NCBI RefSeq assembly: GCF_000001735.4
Contig: NC_003070.9
Location: forward strand, 620,001 to 684,000
DNA length: 64,000 nt
DNA from: Arabidopsis thaliana
Taxonomy: Eukaryota; Streptophyta; Magnoliopsida; Brassicales; Brassicaceae
Direction of reading: 5' to 3'
The position numbers and the translations under genes were made by a program. Numbering within the stretch: position 1 is the stretch's first letter; the number at the start of each line of letters is the position of its first letter. Below the pieces are notes generated by a model. It did no database searches. It saw nothing but the letters and a program-made list of their open reading frames with translations, and was not told the DNA's origin. Below are positions 31,798 through 46,456 of this stretch, piece after piece.

Positions 31798-33975
31798 ATC
31801 TCTCTCTCTAATTCTTCTTCTTCACCGCCGCCGTCTCCGCCGCTTGATTCAAAGAAGAGATTTTCACTGCAAAAGTCGGTTTTATCTTAAATAATAATAT
31901 TCAGACAAGTGCTGCAACTTTCTCTTCTTCTTATATAAAAGTTCGTATCTCCACTCTTTTTTTTTTTTTTTTTTCCTTTTTCTTTGTCATATTTCTAAAA
32001 CATTTAACAAGTTTCCATTTTTTTACTTTAAGAAACAAATTTCACCCTCGTATTAGAAACGACAAAAATTAATTAATTACAAAATCAGCACTTTTGACCA
32101 AAGCATTATAAAATGATCACAAGTAGATTTTGAGGGAATTATATTGAAGAAGTAGATTCTCTCATTCGCTTATTGGTACAGATTTAAAACCAAAAACATC
32201 CAACGGTCAATATTTAAATTTTGCCAAATATATATATAATAAAGACGAATTACAGAACTTAACATAGAGACCCAAGCATTGGAATATTTTGCTGCATGCT
32301 CTACCTGTTTTTGTGGCTGATTTTTTTAATCGTTTAATTTGTTGGGTTTACATGTTGACAACTTGACATGCGTTTTATTGCATTTCAAGTAACATTCTTA
32401 CAGCTATTTCAATACGTATTTTATCTAAACCATCACACAAGTGTGTCATATGTTTCATTGTATTTGTAATGTATTCAAATATATGGTGTTTTAGATGAAT
32501 TTCAAACTTAAAACTAAGGTCAACTGTGGTGATAATTATGGGGTAACTAAATTACCAAACTCGTTTGCAGTTAGGAACGAACCGAATGTTCTAGTATTAA
32601 GCACGTGTATTGATCCCGCCAATTATATGAGCAGTAAGTCTACTGTTCAATAGACAGAAAAATTGTAAATAGGTAAAGGCCCATTAGTGTGGTGCGGCTT
32701 TAAGACCGGCCCATTTTAAGTCGGTTGGTTCAAATCCATCACTTATTGAAAGAGGGAAAAAGAGAAAGACGAGACATTTAATGGTGGAATGGAAAATGTA
32801 TAAGAAAATATTTCAAAATTTTGTGGCCAATCATTTTTTGGGATAAGGATCAACCAAAGAAGAAGATGTTTTCTATTGTTTATAAAAAGAGAAACTCAAT
32901 CCTGAATATTATCTTCTTCTTTATTTTCGGATATTTGGGATAGCTAGGGAGAAGATTAAAAAAAATTGTAACTCATCATGTTCTTTCTTTTCTAGCGTAT
33001 GCAAGCAAACATGTTGCGAATTTTTGCCATGATTAATGAATACCTTTTAACAAACCAAAAAAAATCAAAAATCCATTATCATGGATCTTCTACCTATATT
33101 ATTGTTATTTGTAGTACCTCTATTTTCTTTCAACGATGGAACGTTTTTAAGTTTTAACTATAAAATTTTGCAAATTACATGAAAATGATTTATAAAATTG
33201 ATGTTGTTACGGATGGTTCAACTACTTGATTTAATTATTAAGATAGTGTTCTCCTGATTAGCAACTTGGCCAATTTAACCTAAAAGAAACCGTGTTAGAA
33301 CCATGTTGTCAAGCTGATGGGCGACATGTTTTATTGAGACAACCCCTAATTGATTAGACAAGAACCAAAAATGTTAGTTTGTTATAATAATGTCTGCATG
33401 TTTCACGCTTTTTGTTACTAATTCAAGTATGTTTTGTTTTGTAGTGAATTTCCTTCTATGTTTCCAAGCCCATGTTTCAGTTTCTCAAACCCTTCGAAGA
33501 GAAAAAGTGGTATCATGGATAAAACCAATTTCTTACGATCCGGTTTGGTTCAAATCGACCAATATATATAAAATATTAATTTTCAAAACAAACTAATTCC
33601 CGTAAACGCGCCGAGAGTTGGTAAGGGTTAGGTTGAGAGTTGGTCACTTGTGTGTTGCAACTTGAGACCGGTTATTCAATCCGACTGTGAAAGCGGCTGA
33701 GGTACAAACCAAACCCGGTTTGATCAAACGTAGGTAATAACTCTTTGAATACTCGTCTCTTTGTAATAATTAAAAACCAAACAACTTCATGGATCATTAA
33801 GACCATGATTATTCACATAAAATATTACAAATCAACCCAATTTGATCAAAACATAGGTCTTTACTATTGTGCAGAGACATGATGAATATTTAAAGATTTA
33901 ATTAAAATGAAAACGCTTGATGGATCAAAGAAAACATAAGTCAAGATCAAGAAGATAGCTTTCTTGTTTGTAGGT
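31798..33975. other. Intergenic: AAA ATPase promoter and RALF1 3' flank
   Basis: A TATA-like element and CTTCTT-rich leader of the AAA gene lie at 31800-31970. Two GGCCCA motifs are at about 32677-32714. A GGTTCAAATCC tract near 32727 recalls a tRNA B box but has no partner A box or cloverleaf. No coding frame with family features was seen in the remainder. Confidence 0.45.
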
Positions 33976-35748: not shown

Positions 35749-38125
35749 TCATCTTTCTAACTTGCTGAGAACGTCATCCATTGGCGGTAACTCCTTCGAT
35801 ATCTCAGCCCAATCCGGCATCCCCTGAAAAAACAGAGTTTTTATTACTTACCACAAAACCTCCTCAAAAACCAATAAGTAGATATCAAACACGAGAAAGC
35901 AAGAGAGGAAAAGGTTTCTAGATGAAACTTACTCTACCCGATCTGCGGACTCGACCATCTAACCGCAGTATGATGTACACATCATCGCCCGGGTTAACTC
36001 CTTCAGATATCTGTTGATCTCTTATCCACCTGAAACAAACAAAACCAGAGACATCTTTAAGACTCAACAACAAAGTTGCCATCTTTCTTCTATCAAACTT
36101 TGATCAGCAACAAATGGCAATGAAAGTTTCGACCTTTCCCATTCACCAGGCGAAACAGTCTCGGCCTTGAACCTGATTTCACCTTTCAGCTTCGATTGGG
36201 CTACAACCGATTGAGCCCGTGTATCAAAATCTTCCTATCAAGTTAAGAGAACATCACTGTTTTGCAAAATGAGAATATTTTGTTTGTTTTTTTCAAAGAC
36301 AGAATCTTTTCGTTACCCCAATTGAAGGAAGAGATGTAGCTGCCTTTGAAGAAGCTCCAAAACCTTTTTTCTCGATTTCCGGTGTTTTGCGTTCACCCCA
36401 TACCACAGGAACTAAGAGAACACCTCGTCTTAGGAGCTCGGTTCTGAACCTATCTGCTTTTTGCATCGCAAGTGTAACAGTCTCTTTTTTCCCAGCTAGA
36501 ATAACCTAACGACAGTGTCAATCACTACTCAGAAACTCAAAGGCTAATTCACACTCCAGGCAGTAAAAAGTAGAAAAAGAAACTCACAGGTCGAACTGTA
36601 TCCCTTAGCTGCACAAGTTCAACAACGCGGTTGGTTGACAGGCGTAGAGGCAACCGGGAAAGAGTTTCGTCTCGAGTTATTTGAACCATTTGTTCTTCCT
36701 CTTTCTTGTTTTCCCAAAGGAACAATGAAACCATAACAACAATACCTGCACATTGCTGTTCCGAAAGCTTACTCACATAACAGAGAAAAAAAGGAATTTA
36801 AGATTCAAGTGGTGTCTATGACTCACCTCCAATGTTAATTGCAGCATTTCCCGTAGTTTCCAGAAGATTTGGAGCACCATCACCGCCTCTAATTGCCTGA
36901 ACCAGTCTTGGTACGGTAAAGAACATTGAGATACCCGCTGCTGCTGCAAATGCAAAATAAAAGAATTTTCTAACGCCACGAAACGGTGCTCGTACTTCAC
37001 TGATAAGTTTCAGATCTCTCCGGAAATTATCGCCAATATCTTCCCCGCCTAACCTAGCCTGAAACAATTGGAAGAAATTTTCACCAATGAGAAAGTTTTC
37101 CTTGGGATATGAAAAAGATATACAAAAGGAGAGTGCAAGACCTCTTCTTGCAGCTCCTTAAACTCGGGTAATGCGCGAAAGGATGCTAAATCAGGATCGT
37201 TAAGAATCGTGGCAAACTTCAGATTATAATCTCTCAACGCAATTCGCAAGCAATCCACAGCTTTTTTTCCTTCGCCCCTACCTCAAATCGATAAACAATA
37301 GGATGAAATGAAAGAAAACATAATCTCATCAGGATCTTTCAAATCAGTAGATATAAGACAGTTTCATTAGTACATGGTTCGAGGTTCTTACCGGTAAGCA
37401 TGACAACATGCTTTGTTATAGTAAGCAGCTTGTGACTCAATAGGATTTGGAGCCAAACTCAGTGCAGTTTCAAACTGAACAAGAGCATCTTTCACCTGAA
37501 AGAATCCAACATGACAAATCAACTAAATCTGTTCCAAGCAAAGACTCTTTTGCTAGCTCCAAGTGTCAACATTATAACTAGTACAAGCGTATGCAGAGAA
37601 TTGCTAATTTTGTTTCCAAGTTTCAAACATTAAGATCAAGAAACTAGCAACGATCAGACAAAAAGTATCCCTTTTAAAATTACTAGCGACTGGAAAGTAA
37701 CTAAATTTTAGGGCTTACCCATTATACATAATCATACAAGCGTCGCAATAGAAGACAGGAGCAGCCAAAAAGAGTAAGACATAGAAAACCCAAAACCGAC
37801 TGAAACATATTCACCTACGACCACAAAACCATTCGAATCGAACTCTAGTACTTACCCGTCCTCTCTTAAAGAGATCAAGACCAGTATTGACGCACAACTC
37901 TGCCGTGAGATCATCCGTCGGTGAATTTGGAGACGGAGGCGACGACGACGGAGAAGAAGAAGAGGAAGCGTAAACAAACAGATGGGAATCCCAATTCCGG
38001 CGAGAATTGAAAAGGGTCGCGTCTCCTGGTGGCAGCCATGGCCTTCGTTGCTTAACTCTCGAGTAAAGGTTCGAGATGCGGCGGGGGAAATGGCGGTTTA
38101 GCGACGGAGCTGTAGCCACAGCCAT
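35749..38125 (-). CDS. LPA1: LOW PSII ACCUMULATION1 (TPR membrane protein), 9 exons
   Basis: Coding exons: 37856-38125, 37392-37495, 37142-37277, 36827-37058, 36588-36745, 36317-36505, 36134-36234, 35933-36029, 35749-35823; 453 residues. The N-terminus is a typical chloroplast transit peptide rich in Ser, Arg and Pro. Two TPR units follow (TAELCVNTGLDLFKRGRVKD, then ALVQFETALSLAP and AAYYNKACCHAYRGEGKKAV), then two membrane segments (FFYFAFAAAAGISMFFTV and NIGGIVVMVSLFLW) and a stromal domain ending DDVLSKLER. LPA1 helps insert D1 during photosystem II assembly. A copy of its first-exon region lies at 40740-41100. Matches At1g02910. Confidence 0.95.
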
Positions 38126-38885
38126 TCAATTTTCTTCTACGCTTACGGAAAAAAAACAAAACTTTTATCCGCTTTTTATTTCCTCTGTTTTATTTCGGAA
38201 ATAATATTTAACTTCCAACTTCTTTGAATATTATCTAGAAACTTATATTTGGTACGAATTAGACCCAAAGAAAAAAACATTGTTGACTTTGTCACACAAT
38301 GACACAAGGTTTGGAATCGATTAGGAAAACGAAGAAGATTAGTGATTTGATGAGTAGCATAACTAAGCTGGAGTTGGTGTTAAGATTAGTGATTGATGAG
38401 TAGCAGACCTAACTTGGAGTTAGTGTTGTGATATTTTAATAACTGAATGTGATTCTGTCTAACTATGAAGTTTAATATTCTAATTAAATTGCAAAGCATT
38501 AAAAGTCAACAGTCAATTTCTTCCTTACAATGGCAAAAATGAAGTCTCAAGTCAGCTTTCAAAAATTAGAATAATTAAGTCAACTTTCAAGAATGAGATC
38601 AACACTAATTTTCTTTTCTTTTTTTTGGTCATAAGAGATCAACACTACTTATTAGTAGCTAAACTTTAGGCTACCAAATATATTTTTATTATATATCAAG
38701 ACTCATTATTATTGAAGATTACATTCAAACCAAAAAAAAAAAACAGAGGAGACACACACAAAAAAATCACAGAGTGTATGAGAATTTGGCAATTAGGTCA
38801 TCGCCACTTTTATTGTTTATGAGAATTAGGGCAATGAGGTCATCGCCACTTTATTCAATCTTCTGATTAACAGTTTGTGAGTCAC
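38126..38885. other. LPA1 promoter and GSTF7 3' flank, within a duplicated segment
   Basis: LPA1 leader and promoter followed by GSTF7 3' sequence. Much of it is repeated, diverged, at 40870-41362. No other gene. A local near-repeat (GAGAATTNGGCAATNAGGTCATCGCCACTTT) occurs at about 38781 and 38820. Confidence 0.6.
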
Positions 38886-40107
<1,222 letters not shown>

Positions 40108-40720
40108 GCAATGTGAAGTTATTATTAGTCAAGAAGCTATTCTTTTTGAATCGTTCTTCGTAATAAATCTATCTAGAACCTTCTCTAGCTTCGCCTTGCT
40201 TGCATTCACAACCTTATAGTCCGTCTTTAGATTTAATGGATTATACCCATGTAAGTATTGATGCGAGTGGATCGAACTCATAAGTTTCAATATCCATTCA
40301 CAATGTTTGTGTTCCCATTGTTTTGTAGCTTTCGTAATTCACAAGTTATGAGCCTTTTGATCTATGGACAGACGAGATGTATTCAGATATAGCTCGAGAC
40401 TCTGAGCAAGACTAGACATATCAAAATTTTCCCGAAATCAAACTCAAAAATGTTTATCAGATCAATAGTTGCATGAGTAAGGTCAAGAGGCTAAAAACCC
40501 TAATAAGATATAACAAATATAAGCAACTGATCGTTACGTAATAATATACCCTCGTTATAACAAGTTTACTAGGTCGTCGATGACTAATCGCTAAATTAGT
40601 AAACAAAAATAGTTCAAAATAGGTCTACTTCAGTAAAGAGTTTAGAGATTAAAAGACGATCGTTCGAGCAGAAAAGACCAGTTAAATGGAAACCCTAGTT
40701 AAGACTTACATTCCGTGAAT
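40108..40720 (-). pseudogene. GSTF5-like gene fragment between GSTF7 and GSTF6
   Basis: The plus-strand sequence from about 40108 to 40430 follows GSTF5 exon 5 at 43248-43545: shared runs include TCTAGAACCTTCTCTAGCTT, ACCTTATAGTCCGTCTTTAG, TGTTCCCATTGTTTTGTAGC and ATGTATTCAGATATAGCTCG. Further on, 40683-40705 (AAATGGAAACCCTAGTTAAG) matches the GSTF5 intron at 43689-43708. The coding frame is broken by small indels, and the GSTF5 3' end is missing. It is the left-behind part of a tandem duplication that also made GSTF6/GSTF7. Confidence 0.85.
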
Positions 40721-40739: not shown

Positions 40740-41100
40740 AATGAGAATCCTAATTCCGGCGAGAATTGAAAAGGGTCTCCGTCTCCTGGTAATAACCATT
40801 TCCGTCGTTTCTTCGCACTCGAGTAAACAGAGGTTTTGCGACAGCTATGCAATTTATTTATATGCTTTCCTAAGAAAACCCTAATTTTATCTTAAACACG
40901 CTTCCTTTTGTTCCTCTGTTTTATTTCGGAAACTAATTAACTTTCAACTTTTTTGATCTAGGAACCTTTTTTGGTGACAGTTACGCTCAAACAAATATGA
41001 ATAACATTGTTGACTTTGAAGCTTGCCATCACCACAGAAGGTTTGGAATCGATTAGGGAAAGGAAGAAGATTAGTGATTGATGAGTAGCAGAGCGACCTA
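40740..41100 (-). pseudogene. Truncated copy of LPA1 exon 1 and promoter
   Basis: The segment repeats 37981 to about 38400: AATTCCGGCGAGAATTGAAAAGGGT is shared (40751 and 37995 areas), then CTCGAGTAAA, TCCTCTGTTTTATTTCGGAAA and GGTTTGGAATCGATTAGG. Only the 5' part of the LPA1 first exon and its upstream region are present. The region of the LPA1 ATG is diverged and no useful frame remains. The left edge (about 40735) abuts the GSTF5-like fragment, marking the duplication junction. Confidence 0.85.
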
Positions 41101-43078: not shown

Positions 43079-44277
43079 TTAATTCTTCTTCTTATGGTAC
43101 CAAGCCTTCACATCACATGCCCTCTTCCAAGCCGGTCTAGCTGTGATCTCAGCCACCCACCGGCGCACGCTTGGCCGGTTTACAAACATTCTCTTTGTAT
43201 GTGTGTCCATAAGGTATTGTATATTAGGAAGGTGATAAAGATCAGCCATTGTGAAGCTGTTACTAGCCAAGAAGCTAGAATTTTTGAGTCGTTCTTCGTA
43301 TATATCTAGAACCTTCTCTAGCTTCGCCTCGGTTTCATTCACAACCTTATAGTCCGTCTTTAGACCGTACATAGGCTTGATGGATTGTTCCCAGGTCAGT
43401 GTTGATGTGAGTGGATCAAACTCAAAAGATTCGATAGCCATCCACATTCTTTGTGTTCCCATTGTTTTGTAGCTTTTGTAATTCAGAAGTTGTGTGCCTC
43501 TTGATTTATGGACAGTCGCTATGTATTCAGATATAGCTCGAGATTCTGACGAAAACAAATTATATCAAAATTCATTAGATCATTAATTAGTTGAAAATGT
43601 AGTTTTAAACTCACCAGTCAACTTAAGACCCCCGTCTAGGAAAACTGGGACTTGACCAAATGGCTGCATCAATAAGAAGAGACCAATAAAATGGAAACCC
43701 TAGTTAAGACCTAACCATTAATCATGAAGCAGAGTTAGATATTTAGATGTGAAAAGTACATTGATAGCGAGAAAACTCGGCTTCTTCTGGTCACCGGCTA
43801 TCAAGTTGACGGTGATGGGATCGTAAGAGAGACCTTTCTCATGAAGAACGGCGAGGACACGCCTTGTGTTGGTTGAGTAAGGGTACCCATAAATCTTGTA
43901 CTCTGCAATTTTACATATTTCATCATGTAATACGATGAAGAAGGAGGAGAATTAAGAAACCCATCAAAACTTCTTTATTCCATCCCATTAATTAGTATAT
44001 AAATGAGTATGATTACCATCTTTACGAGCTAATTCTTGACACCATTTAAAGCATTGGCGACTACTCTCGAACGTCTGGTTACAATGATGGTAGCAAGTTT
44101 CCGGTACATGGCTCGCGTTTATGCCCATCCCTACAACGCAATTATGAATATTCAAAACCATAGCACAAGAAGAAAAGCAAACAAAAAAAATTCAAGATAA
44201 TTACATTTGAGTGGTTCATAAGAAATGGACAGCATAACCATGAGAGTAAACAAAACCAATAATATGGAGGAACCCAT
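43079..44277 (-). CDS. GSTF5: Phi-class GST GSTF5 with recruited secretory-type 5' exons, 5 exons
   Basis: Coding exons: 44205-44277, 44017-44130, 43760-43902, 43615-43663, 43079-43545; 281 residues. The last three exons are an ordinary phi GST ([20 protein letters not shown] with catalytic serine, [19 protein letters not shown]). The first two encode a hydrophobic leader [20 protein letters not shown] and a segment with four cysteines spaced CYHHC-X9-CFKWC. The codon where GSTF6/7 have their ATG reads ATT here, inside the sequence now used as splice acceptor (TTGCAG). Cytosolic GSTs normally lack such a leader, so this product could enter the secretory route. If intron 2 is retained, the first exons alone give a 71-residue peptide. 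Matches At1g02940; the exon 1-2 joining is inferred. Confidence 0.82.
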
Positions 44278-45307
44278 TTTTTCTACTCTCTCTACTCTCT
44301 ATAGTACACTCATAGAGGATAGAGCATATAAAGATGTATTTATAATTAGATAAGGTGAATCCATAACCATTATTATTTACTTTATTTCCTTTTCAAAATT
44401 TGTTAATTAATAAGTTGGATTTTTTACATGAAATTGTAGATTTCTTTCCTTTTACAGTTTTTTGTTCTTATATGAACTTTTTGCACTAGCTTATACAATT
44501 TAGCCAATCTAATTAGGTAGGATATAGCGTTGAACCAAAAAATAAAATAAAAAAATTGAGGTATAGATTTAATAGCTTATCTAATTGAGGTATATAAAGT
44601 TTAACTGTTTTTCACTCAAGTAAATTTAACACTAAGACTAAATTATATTGTTTTTTGCAAATATTTTTATTATGTAAACTATTTTTTTTATATACAAAAT
44701 ATTTTCGTTTGCAAGGTTTTTAAGTAAATAAAATAATTTTTTTACCTTTTAAATTTTCGGATTTAAAATTTTCAAATATATTTTTATTGATTTAACTAAT
44801 TTAGTACTAGGAATACCCAAATATTCAATGAAACTGGATTTTATTATTTTCAGTTTTATTATTATTATTTGAATTGAAAATAATTGAAATATTATCAAAA
44901 CCAATCCAATATGTTCAGGCACCACATCCGAGGCTGTGTGAATATAGCTTGTTTTAAAATTCCCTCCTTCTATTTGGTTACTCCAGAAGATATTGGTAGT
45001 TTTGGAGTAATGCAACTTAACATAACAAGAATGCATGAGTGTAGTGATCTATAAATTCAAAATTGGCATCGAATTATTTATATCTGCTTTTCGCATTTTC
45101 ATAATCGTAGAATCTTATCTGAATTTATCTAATTAGTTTAAATAATGCTTTTTTTGTTCTTTATTTATTTACATGAAACATATATTAACCAAACATAAAA
45201 TAAGATTCGCAAGGCAACAAACAACACGCACAAGCTTACAAACAAAGACCCAAACTCAACATACACATACACACACATTCACACGTAAAGATTACTTCTG
45301 CTTTCAG
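44278..45307. other. GSTF5 promoter and GSTF4 3' flank
   Basis: TATAAATA on the minus strand at 44337-44344, 60 bases before the GSTF5 ATG. The rest is AT-rich spacer without a gene; a CA-rich tract (ACATACACACACATTCACAC) lies at about 45262-45281, in the GSTF4 3' region. Confidence 0.5.
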
Positions 45308-46456
45308 TTAGTTCCTTGGCTTATTAAACCAAGATTTCTCTTGATCACATGCCATTTTCCAAGCCTCTCTACTCGTAATCTCATCCACCCACTTACGCAC
45401 TTTAGATCTTTTTTCGAACAATTTCTTCGTTGGAGTTCCCAAAAGGTATTGTATGTTTGGTAGGTGATGAAGATCAACCAAAGTAAAGCTATTACAAGCC
45501 AAGAATCTAGATTCTTCGAGTCGTTTCTCGTAGATATTTAGAACTTTCTCTAGAATAGCCTCGTTCTCTTTGACGATTGTTTGGTCAGTCTCTAGACCGT
45601 AGATAGGCTTAATGACTTGTTCCCAAGTGAGTTTCGATGCGGGTGGATCAAACTGATGAGCTTCGATTTCCATCCACATTGTTAGAGTTGCCATTGTCTC
45701 GTGACTTCTAAGATTCAGAAGCTGTGTGCCTCTTGAGCTATGAACATATGCGATGTATTGTGTGATGGCTCGGGATTCTAGAGGGGGAAAAGTTGATTAG
45801 AGATATAAGTATAACAAATGTTTATCATGTTGTTGTTATTAGTGTGTAAGATTAAACTCACCATACAGCTTAACACTTCCATCCTCAAAAACAGGGACTT
45901 GACCAAATGGCTGCATCAATAACACATTGTTAAAACTCGAAATCCTTGGGTGACAAGTAACCAAGACAAGCCCTAGGTGAGTATCAAAACCTAACCATAT
46001 ATAACAAATTTTTGTATATGTAGATGATTCGGCACAAAGTCAATCTATAATTAGGTGTGTAATATCTCATCCTGAAATTACTAATCATTCGATTTTGCGA
46101 TATCATTCCTTACGTTGAGAGAGAGGAAAGGTTCGGTTTTGTGTTCACCGGTTTGCAATTTGACGGTAATAGGCTCGTAAGAGAGTCTTTTCTCATGGAG
46201 AACAGCGAGGACACGCCTTGTGTTGGTGGAGAAAGGATCGCCATGAACCTTGTAACCTGCAACTTTGAATCATAGAACAAATTTCACTGAAATCAAAATT
46301 ATCTTAATTTTTGTTTGTTTGTTATAAACCTATATATTAATTAATCTTACCGAGCTTTTTAACTTCTGCCTCACGTTTCCAGTTTGGAAATAACTTGAAC
46401 ACCATCTGTAAGCAGTCCATATATACGATATAGATACACTTGTTTAATTTCTGCAT
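45308..46456 (-). CDS. GSTF4: Phi-class GST GSTF4 with novel N-terminal exon, 4 exons
   Basis: Coding exons 46351-46456, 46114-46256, 45862-45910 and 45308-45777. From ATG 46456 the product has 255 residues, which agrees with my memory of the database length; ATG 46405 ([18 protein letters not shown]) would give 238. The GST core is standard: [20 protein letters not shown] with catalytic serine, [27 protein letters not shown], and a C-terminal domain ending SWFNKPRN. The position equal to the GSTF6/7 start reads GTT-GCA-GGT-TAC: the ATG is gone and the GCAG now serves as splice acceptor. The extension has no similarity to that of GSTF5. Matches At1g02950. Confidence 0.86.

What the first reader, a model, noticed from the sequence alone, without database searches (positions are those of the whole stretch)
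44017..44277. Secreted alpha-hairpinin-like segment in front of GSTF5, possibly also a stand-alone peptide
Exons 1-2 encode a strong hydrophobic leader followed by ETCYHHC-X9[11 protein letters not shown]. CX3C-Xn-CX3C is the cysteine frame of alpha-hairpinin antimicrobial peptides and vicilin-buried peptides. Reading through the donor at 44016 gives [11 protein letters not shown] and a stop, a complete 71-residue secreted peptide. The locus may therefore make a small cysteine-rich peptide, a secreted GST fusion, or both by alternative splicing. I know of no described plant GST with such a leader.
Basis: partly seen in the sequence, partly recalled or inferred. Interest (0 to 1): 0.82.

Follow-up and report, generated by a model that had tools for sequence, protein, structure and literature searches.

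The report
Signal-peptide hairpin leader on GSTF5
A plant detoxification-enzyme gene carries two extra front exons that look like a secretion signal plus a small two-helix cysteine clasp, so the enzyme may be sent out of the cytosol; the idea that the front part is also made alone is not supported.

Summary
The sequence described is there. On the minus strand, 44277-44205 and 44130-44017 join into a hydrophobic leader plus CX3C-X9-CX3C, then in frame to a complete phi-class glutathione transferase (281 aa). The cysteine frame and the leader are each rare in this DNA. The open frame around the first GST exon holds no Met, so the enzyme needs a start in an upstream exon, and these exons give one. 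Its intron phase matches that of neighbouring GSTF4, whose front exon shows no convincing similarity. A TATAAATA box lies 67 nt before the ATG. I read GSTF5 as a chimeric gene making an ER-targeted hairpin-GST. The stand-alone 71-residue peptide is what reading into an AT-rich intron gives by chance. Membership in a named peptide family is not shown: Pfam PF24552 scores 18.1 against a cut-off of 27, and neither PDB sequence hit is a plant alpha-hairpinin. No plant genome, transcript or proteome was available, so conservation, splicing and secretion are untested. A review of array data puts high GSTF5 expression in early siliques/seeds; other papers report it in stressed or treated plants.

The parts
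44337..44344 (-). TATAAATA box, 67 nt before the ATG of exon 1
   Evidence: Exact match; 12 such sites on both strands of 64 kb (8 minus, 4 plus). Minus-strand sites also lie about 100-110 nt before the ATGs of GSTF6 (42301) and GSTF7 (39806).
44205..44277 (-). Exon 1: hydrophobic leader [24 protein letters not shown]; possible cleavage after S19 (S at -3 and -1)
   Evidence: 15-residue Kyte-Doolittle peak 2.71; cleavage site judged by eye, no signal-peptide program available.
44131..44204 (-). Intron 1, GT...AG, 74 nt, 73% AT
44017..44130 (-). Exon 2: CX3C-X9-CX3C hairpin segment, sequons NAS and NQT, internal in-frame ATG (Met26)
43903..44016 (-). Intron 2, phase 1, 114 nt; read-through gives [11 protein letters not shown] and a stop; alternative in-frame donor at 44025
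43760..43902 (-). Exon 3: start of the GST N-terminal domain; the open frame 43718-43951 holds no Met
43615..43663 (-). Exon 4: GST N-terminal domain, [16 protein letters not shown]
43079..43545 (-). Exon 5: ESRAI motif and C-terminal domain to the stop; sequons NET and NSS
46351..46405 (-). Comparison, not part of the gene: front exon of GSTF4, which would join in the same phase before its GST domain (exon start 46256)
   Evidence: no convincing similarity to GSTF5 exon 2 (DNA p 0.087, protein p 0.56)

Best explanation
GSTF5 is one transcription unit in which a small-peptide-like front end (signal peptide exon plus hairpin exon) is joined, through a phase-1 intron, to a phi-class GST that has no start codon of its own. 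The main product would be a 281-residue protein that enters the ER, loses about 19 residues, forms a two-disulfide helical hairpin at its N terminus and carries a folded GST domain into the secretory pathway. Shown here: the open frame across the proposed exons, intron phase, missing Met in the GST exon, leader hydrophobicity, cysteine frame and intact GST sequence. Inferred: splicing, ER entry, cleavage, disulfides, glycosylation and secretion. The most likely role, inferred only, is a ligand-binding or peroxide-handling GST outside the cytosol, chiefly in young seeds, with the hairpin as a stabilising or docking module.
For: In-frame 281-aa join with GT-AG introns. No Met in the open frame of the first GST exon, so the GST needs an upstream start. 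GSTF4 has an acceptor at the same place and phase, and GSTF4-GSTF5 homology runs only about 10 bases past that splice site. TATA box just upstream. Hydrophobic leader matched by 5 of 783 ATGs, and a cysteine frame rare by chance. Helices 10-19 and 23-36 in the model, with blocks 11-20 and 21-30 at mean pLDDT 82 and 84. GST_N and GST_C far above cut-off and a close match to solved phi GSTs. Two sequons in the GST domain; over the parts joined, none in GSTF4, and one each in GSTF6 and GSTF7 that I read as an artefact of two intron residues in my crude join. Published: edits were made in exons 2 and 4 of AtGSTF5, so its annotated model has at least four exons, more than the three that carry the GST here. 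GSTF5 is reported highly expressed only in the first two silique/seed stages among the development samples.
Against: No transcript, proteome or cross-species data could be tested. Codon score of exons 1 and 2 is neutral and one wrong frame of exon 2 scores higher. The leader has no charged residue before its hydrophobic run. GST chemistry needs glutathione, thought to be scarce in the apoplast (recalled). The hairpin model comes from a single sequence, mean pLDDT 69.7, pTM 0.42, and Foldseek found no solved match. Expression reports differ: very low in wild type, leaf 40-fold above cell suspensions, and changes with flg22 and PARP inhibition, cold plus osmotic stress in mutants, and herbicide; the main text of an early-seed atlas does not contain 'GSTF'. 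A further, unseen upstream exon is not excluded.
Confidence: 0.62

Rival explanations
1. The working product is a cytosolic 256-residue GST started at Met26 in exon 2, from a downstream transcription start, so that the hairpin cysteines stay reduced and the leader is unused or used only in some tissues.
For: Met26 is in frame and leaves 256 of the 281 aa. GSTF8 is reported to use an alternative transcription start for dual targeting (passage).
Against: TATA box and the start context of exon 1 (A at -3, G at +4) point to exon 1. Four cysteines in a hairpin frame and two sequons would have no evident use in the cytosol.
Confidence: 0.2
2. A stand-alone 71-residue secreted cysteine-rich peptide is made by intron-2 retention, alone or beside the fusion.
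For: Complete open frame with leader, four cysteines and a third sequon NHT. The 71-aa reading scores slightly better against PF24552 than a 72-aa fusion start or a 61-aa truncation (18.1, 15.3 and 15.6 bits).
Against: Stop distance in the intron is chance-level; the intron has ordinary length and composition; no poly(A) evidence available.
Confidence: 0.08
3. The front exons are a chance or decaying open frame, or a separate small gene, and the join to the GST is not biologically meaningful.
For: Neutral codon score, low expression in wild type, and a GSTF5-like remnant at 40101-40428 and 40670-40708 nearby that shows decay in this cluster.
Against: Leader, cysteine frame, open frame, phase match and missing GST start coincide, and the GST domain reads intact.
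Confidence: 0.1

Closest known systems
Phi-class glutathione transferases (solved chains 5f05 'GSTF5', 5a4u 'F2', 1bx9)
   Same: GST_N and GST_C domains; aligned active-site region with Ser, and the ESRAI motif. That 5f05 is from poplar and 1bx9 is Arabidopsis GSTF2 is recalled.
   Different: A leader plus cysteine hairpin replaces the usual start; none of the eight poplar GSTFs is reported to have a targeting sequence (passage). The shared label GSTF5 of the poplar chain is numbering only.
Alpha-hairpinins and vicilin-buried peptides
   Same: CX3C-Xn-CX3C, predicted helix-loop-helix, hydrophobic leader in front, fusion to a larger protein
   Different: Single module fused to a GST; described genes carry 2-4 modules before a vicilin-like domain or 5-12 in a cassette (review PMC7191063, passages). 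No match to a plant alpha-hairpinin in the PDB sequences.
Pfam PF24552 'Defensin-like'
   Same: Only Pfam match of the 71-aa reading, residues 35-63, lost when Cys becomes Ser
   Different: 18.1 bits against a cut-off of 27; 1 of 27 cysteine-fixed shuffles also matched, at 14.1 bits. What its members are I could not see.
AtGSTF8 with alternative start
   Same: Phi GST with an N-terminal targeting extension
   Different: Chloroplast, not secretory (passage); absence of a cysteine hairpin is recalled
PDB 6ofa, 'Wasabi Receptor Toxin'
   Same: Matched at E 0.46 through the cysteine frame
   Different: Not significant; read as convergence. The other hit, 4hb1 'DHP1', reaches E 8.1e-05 only by summing four weak repeats, none passing alone, and aligns no cysteine.

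Membership tests
Alpha-hairpinin | XnC-X3-C-Xn-C-X3-C motif | tested here: met
   CYHHC-X9-CFKWC; definition from PMC7191063 passage
Alpha-hairpinin | Two antiparallel helices joined by a loop | tested here: inconclusive
   Two helices in a single-sequence model, mean pLDDT 69.7, pTM 0.42; no Foldseek match; packing not inspected
Alpha-hairpinin | Disulfides C1-C4 and C2-C3 | not testable with these tools
   Model coordinates were not in the script folder (one search lists only window.fa)
Alpha-hairpinin | Sequence similarity to a solved member (supporting, not defining: the review calls members highly heterogeneous) | tested here: not met
   phmmer of the PDB to E 10: two hits, 4hb1 and 6ofa, neither named as a plant alpha-hairpinin
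Pfam PF24552 | Score at or above the gathering cut-off of 27 bits | tested here: not met
   18.1 bits for the 71-aa reading, 12.9 for the 281-aa fusion
Phi-class GST | GST_N and GST_C domains above cut-off, closest to phi GSTs | tested here: met
   69.4 bits (cut-off 20.9) and 45.2 bits (cut-off 20.7); best PDB chain named phi class, E 4.2e-65
Phi-class GST | Catalytic serine in the N-terminal motif | tested here: met
   Ser of [10 protein letters not shown] aligns with Ser in the two best chains; that a serine here is catalytic is from a poplar passage and recall
Secreted protein | Signal peptide that is cleaved and directs export | tested here: inconclusive
   Hydrophobic leader with small residues at -3 and -1 of one site (by eye); no predictor, no localisation data

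The most novel reading that the evidence does not exclude
A crucifer phi GST has been captured by a seed peptide's promoter, signal peptide and disulfide hairpin, giving a secretory-pathway hairpin-GST used in young seeds: a new protein architecture made by joining a peptide gene to a tandem GST copy.
Probability: 0.4. Interest if true: 0.68.

Novelty: new variant of a known kind. Interest (0 to 1): 0.5.

Why it matters
Phi GSTs are generally treated as cytosolic (as in the poplar passage). If GSTF5 is exported, work that treats it as an ordinary cytosolic GST, such as the test whether it replaces TT19, would need to be read anew. The locus would also be a clear example of gene fusion giving an enzyme a new address and perhaps a new expression pattern.

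Tried and rejected
Stand-alone peptide by intron retention: set aside as chance-level.

PF24552 membership: below cut-off, so not claimed. The Cys-to-Ser change removes the hit. Of 27 cysteine-fixed shuffles (7 without the leader, 20 with it), 1 matched PF24552, at 14.1 bits, and none reached 18.1, so the excess over the bare cysteine frame is small. Single shuffles also drew weak hits to other families, Vicilin_N among them (14.9 bits), which shows how little such scores mean.

Second copy of the hairpin in the window: none found. The best tblastn hit outside the locus had E 0.11, in a repetitive His/Thr/Gln stretch (the long hit list was cut in the middle). Exon 2 DNA against the rest of the window scored 24, within the range 23-29 of 20 shuffles.

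Common origin of GSTF4's front exon and GSTF5 exon 2: not supported, though the DNA test is not far from the margin (p 0.087 in 1000 base shuffles; protein p 0.56).

Relatives in prokaryote genome contigs: 78 pattern matches, 0 confirmed, as expected for a plant gene. Viral contigs were not searched. The sigma-type promoter scan does not apply to a plant. Paper search was too broad; searches gave nothing on GSTF5 in seeds. Trypsin-inhibitor reading: the only Arg between the two CX3C motifs falls in helix 2 of the model, so not pursued.

Full report
Setting. The window looks like the tandem GSTF7, GSTF6, GSTF5, GSTF4 cluster of Arabidopsis chromosome 1. The four genes are read here on the minus strand.

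Anatomy. Exon 1 (44277-44205) encodes [24 protein letters not shown]. Exon 2 (44130-44017) adds [38 protein letters not shown]. Exons 3 to 5 (43902-43760, 43663-43615, 43545-43079) encode a complete GST. The joined frame is 281 aa, or 278 aa with an alternative donor at 44025; from Met26 it is 256 aa. Intron 1 is 74 nt and intron 2 is 114 nt, both GT-AG and over 70% AT, while exons 1 to 3 are 64, 54 and 52% AT. A TATAAATA box lies 67 nt before the ATG. All splice sites are read from sequence.

Is it more than chance? The frame CX3C-X6..15-CX3C occurs twice in six frames of the window against 0.083 expected (60 simulations). A leader as hydrophobic as this one (threshold set at its own value) is found at 5 of 783 ATGs. 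Exon 2 has a single open frame, but its codon score does not separate it from non-coding DNA: 12% of 443 overlapping null stretches reach it, and one wrong frame scores higher.

Why the front exons belong to the GST. The first GST exon lies in an open frame (43718-43951) with no Met. GSTF4 has a phase-1 acceptor at the same place, and GSTF4-GSTF5 homology runs only about 10 bases beyond it. GSTF4's own front exon ([18 protein letters not shown], 46405-46351) shows no convincing similarity to GSTF5 exon 2 (DNA p 0.087, protein p 0.56). So the two GSTs share an intron position but appear to have different front ends, as expected if GSTF5 gained its leader and hairpin by exon exchange; this history is inference. 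The published CRISPR work that cut 'exons 2 and 4' of AtGSTF5 (PMC7229025, passages) shows that the annotated gene has at least four exons, more than the three GST-coding exons here. Which exons those are I could not tell.

The hairpin. A single-sequence AlphaFold2 model of the contiguous 46-residue stretch gives helices at 10-19 and 23-36, mean pLDDT 69.7, pTM 0.42, with 82 and 84 in the blocks 11-20 and 21-30 and no residue at 90 or above. Foldseek found no match in the PDB at E 10 or better. Sequence search of the PDB gave two chains, neither named as a plant alpha-hairpinin: 4hb1 'DHP1' (E 8.1e-05 from four summed weak repeats, none passing alone) and 6ofa 'Wasabi Receptor Toxin' (E 0.46). 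Pfam PF24552 is a sub-threshold match that depends on the cysteines. The segment therefore has the alpha-hairpinin cysteine frame and possibly the fold, but I do not file it as a homologous member.

The enzyme. The GST part scores well above Pfam cut-offs and matches a phi GST of known structure at E 4.2e-65, with the active-site Ser region and the ESRAI motif kept. It carries two N-X-S/T sequons (NET, NSS). Over the parts joined, GSTF4 has none, and the single hits in GSTF6 and GSTF7 come from two intron residues left in my crude join. With NAS and NQT in exon 2 the fusion has four. This fits life in the secretory pathway but is weak evidence.

Expression in print. [quoted passage not shown] PMC7229025 (passages) reports very low expression in wild type, a strong rise in tt19 suppressor lines, and no role in restoring anthocyanins. 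PMC2556100 (passages) reports promoter methylation and silencing in cell suspensions, with leaf expression 40-fold higher. Single passages in PMC5746271, PMC5109278 and PMC8037345 report changes with flg22 and PARP inhibition, combined cold and osmotic stress in mutants, and imazethapyr. The main text of an early-seed atlas, PMC13197225, does not contain 'GSTF'. These accounts do not add up to a seed-only gene. None of the passages I saw mentions a signal peptide on GSTF5.

Novelty. Searches for GSTF5 (42 papers hold the term, many for other species' GSTF5, 40 listed), At1g02940 (7 papers), 'secreted glutathione S-transferase' with signal peptide and plant (0 papers) and signal-peptide phi GST terms (1 and 4 papers, listings only) gave no listing or passage describing this architecture. 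The library holds only open-licence papers, and two key papers on Arabidopsis GSTs that I asked for were not held, so this is not proof of absence. The poplar GSTF paper (passages) says that none of the eight poplar GSTFs has a targeting sequence, and cites GSTF8 for chloroplast targeting through an alternative start. A Brassica rapa GST survey (passages) does not use the word extracellular in its main text.

Verdict. The stand-alone peptide is not supported. Splicing, secretion, disulfides and conservation remain to be shown. In checking this report against its calls I corrected coordinates, added the 4hb1 hit, the wrong-frame codon score and the non-seed expression reports; none of these moved the odds.

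Noticed in passing
40101-40428 and 40670-40708: GSTF5-like remnant between GSTF7 and GSTF6 (81% identity to GSTF5 exon 5 with a little of intron 4, 90% to a piece of intron 3); no trace of the leader or hairpin exons was found there by blastn.
   Followed up: partly
37982-38359 and 40741-41090: Diverged direct repeat (69% identity over 398 columns) in the GST cluster, which together with the GSTF6/GSTF7 match suggests that a unit of more than one gene was duplicated.
   Followed up: no
32967-33014: Second CX3C-Xn-CX3C pattern in the window, plus strand; no ATG or leader in the stretch viewed, probably chance.
   Followed up: partly
44025: In-frame alternative donor GTAAAG nine bases before the main one; would replace RKDE by Q at the hairpin-GST join.
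   Followed up: no
46405: GSTF4's front-exon ATG directly follows an acceptor-like TTACAG, hinting at a further 5' exon.
   Followed up: no
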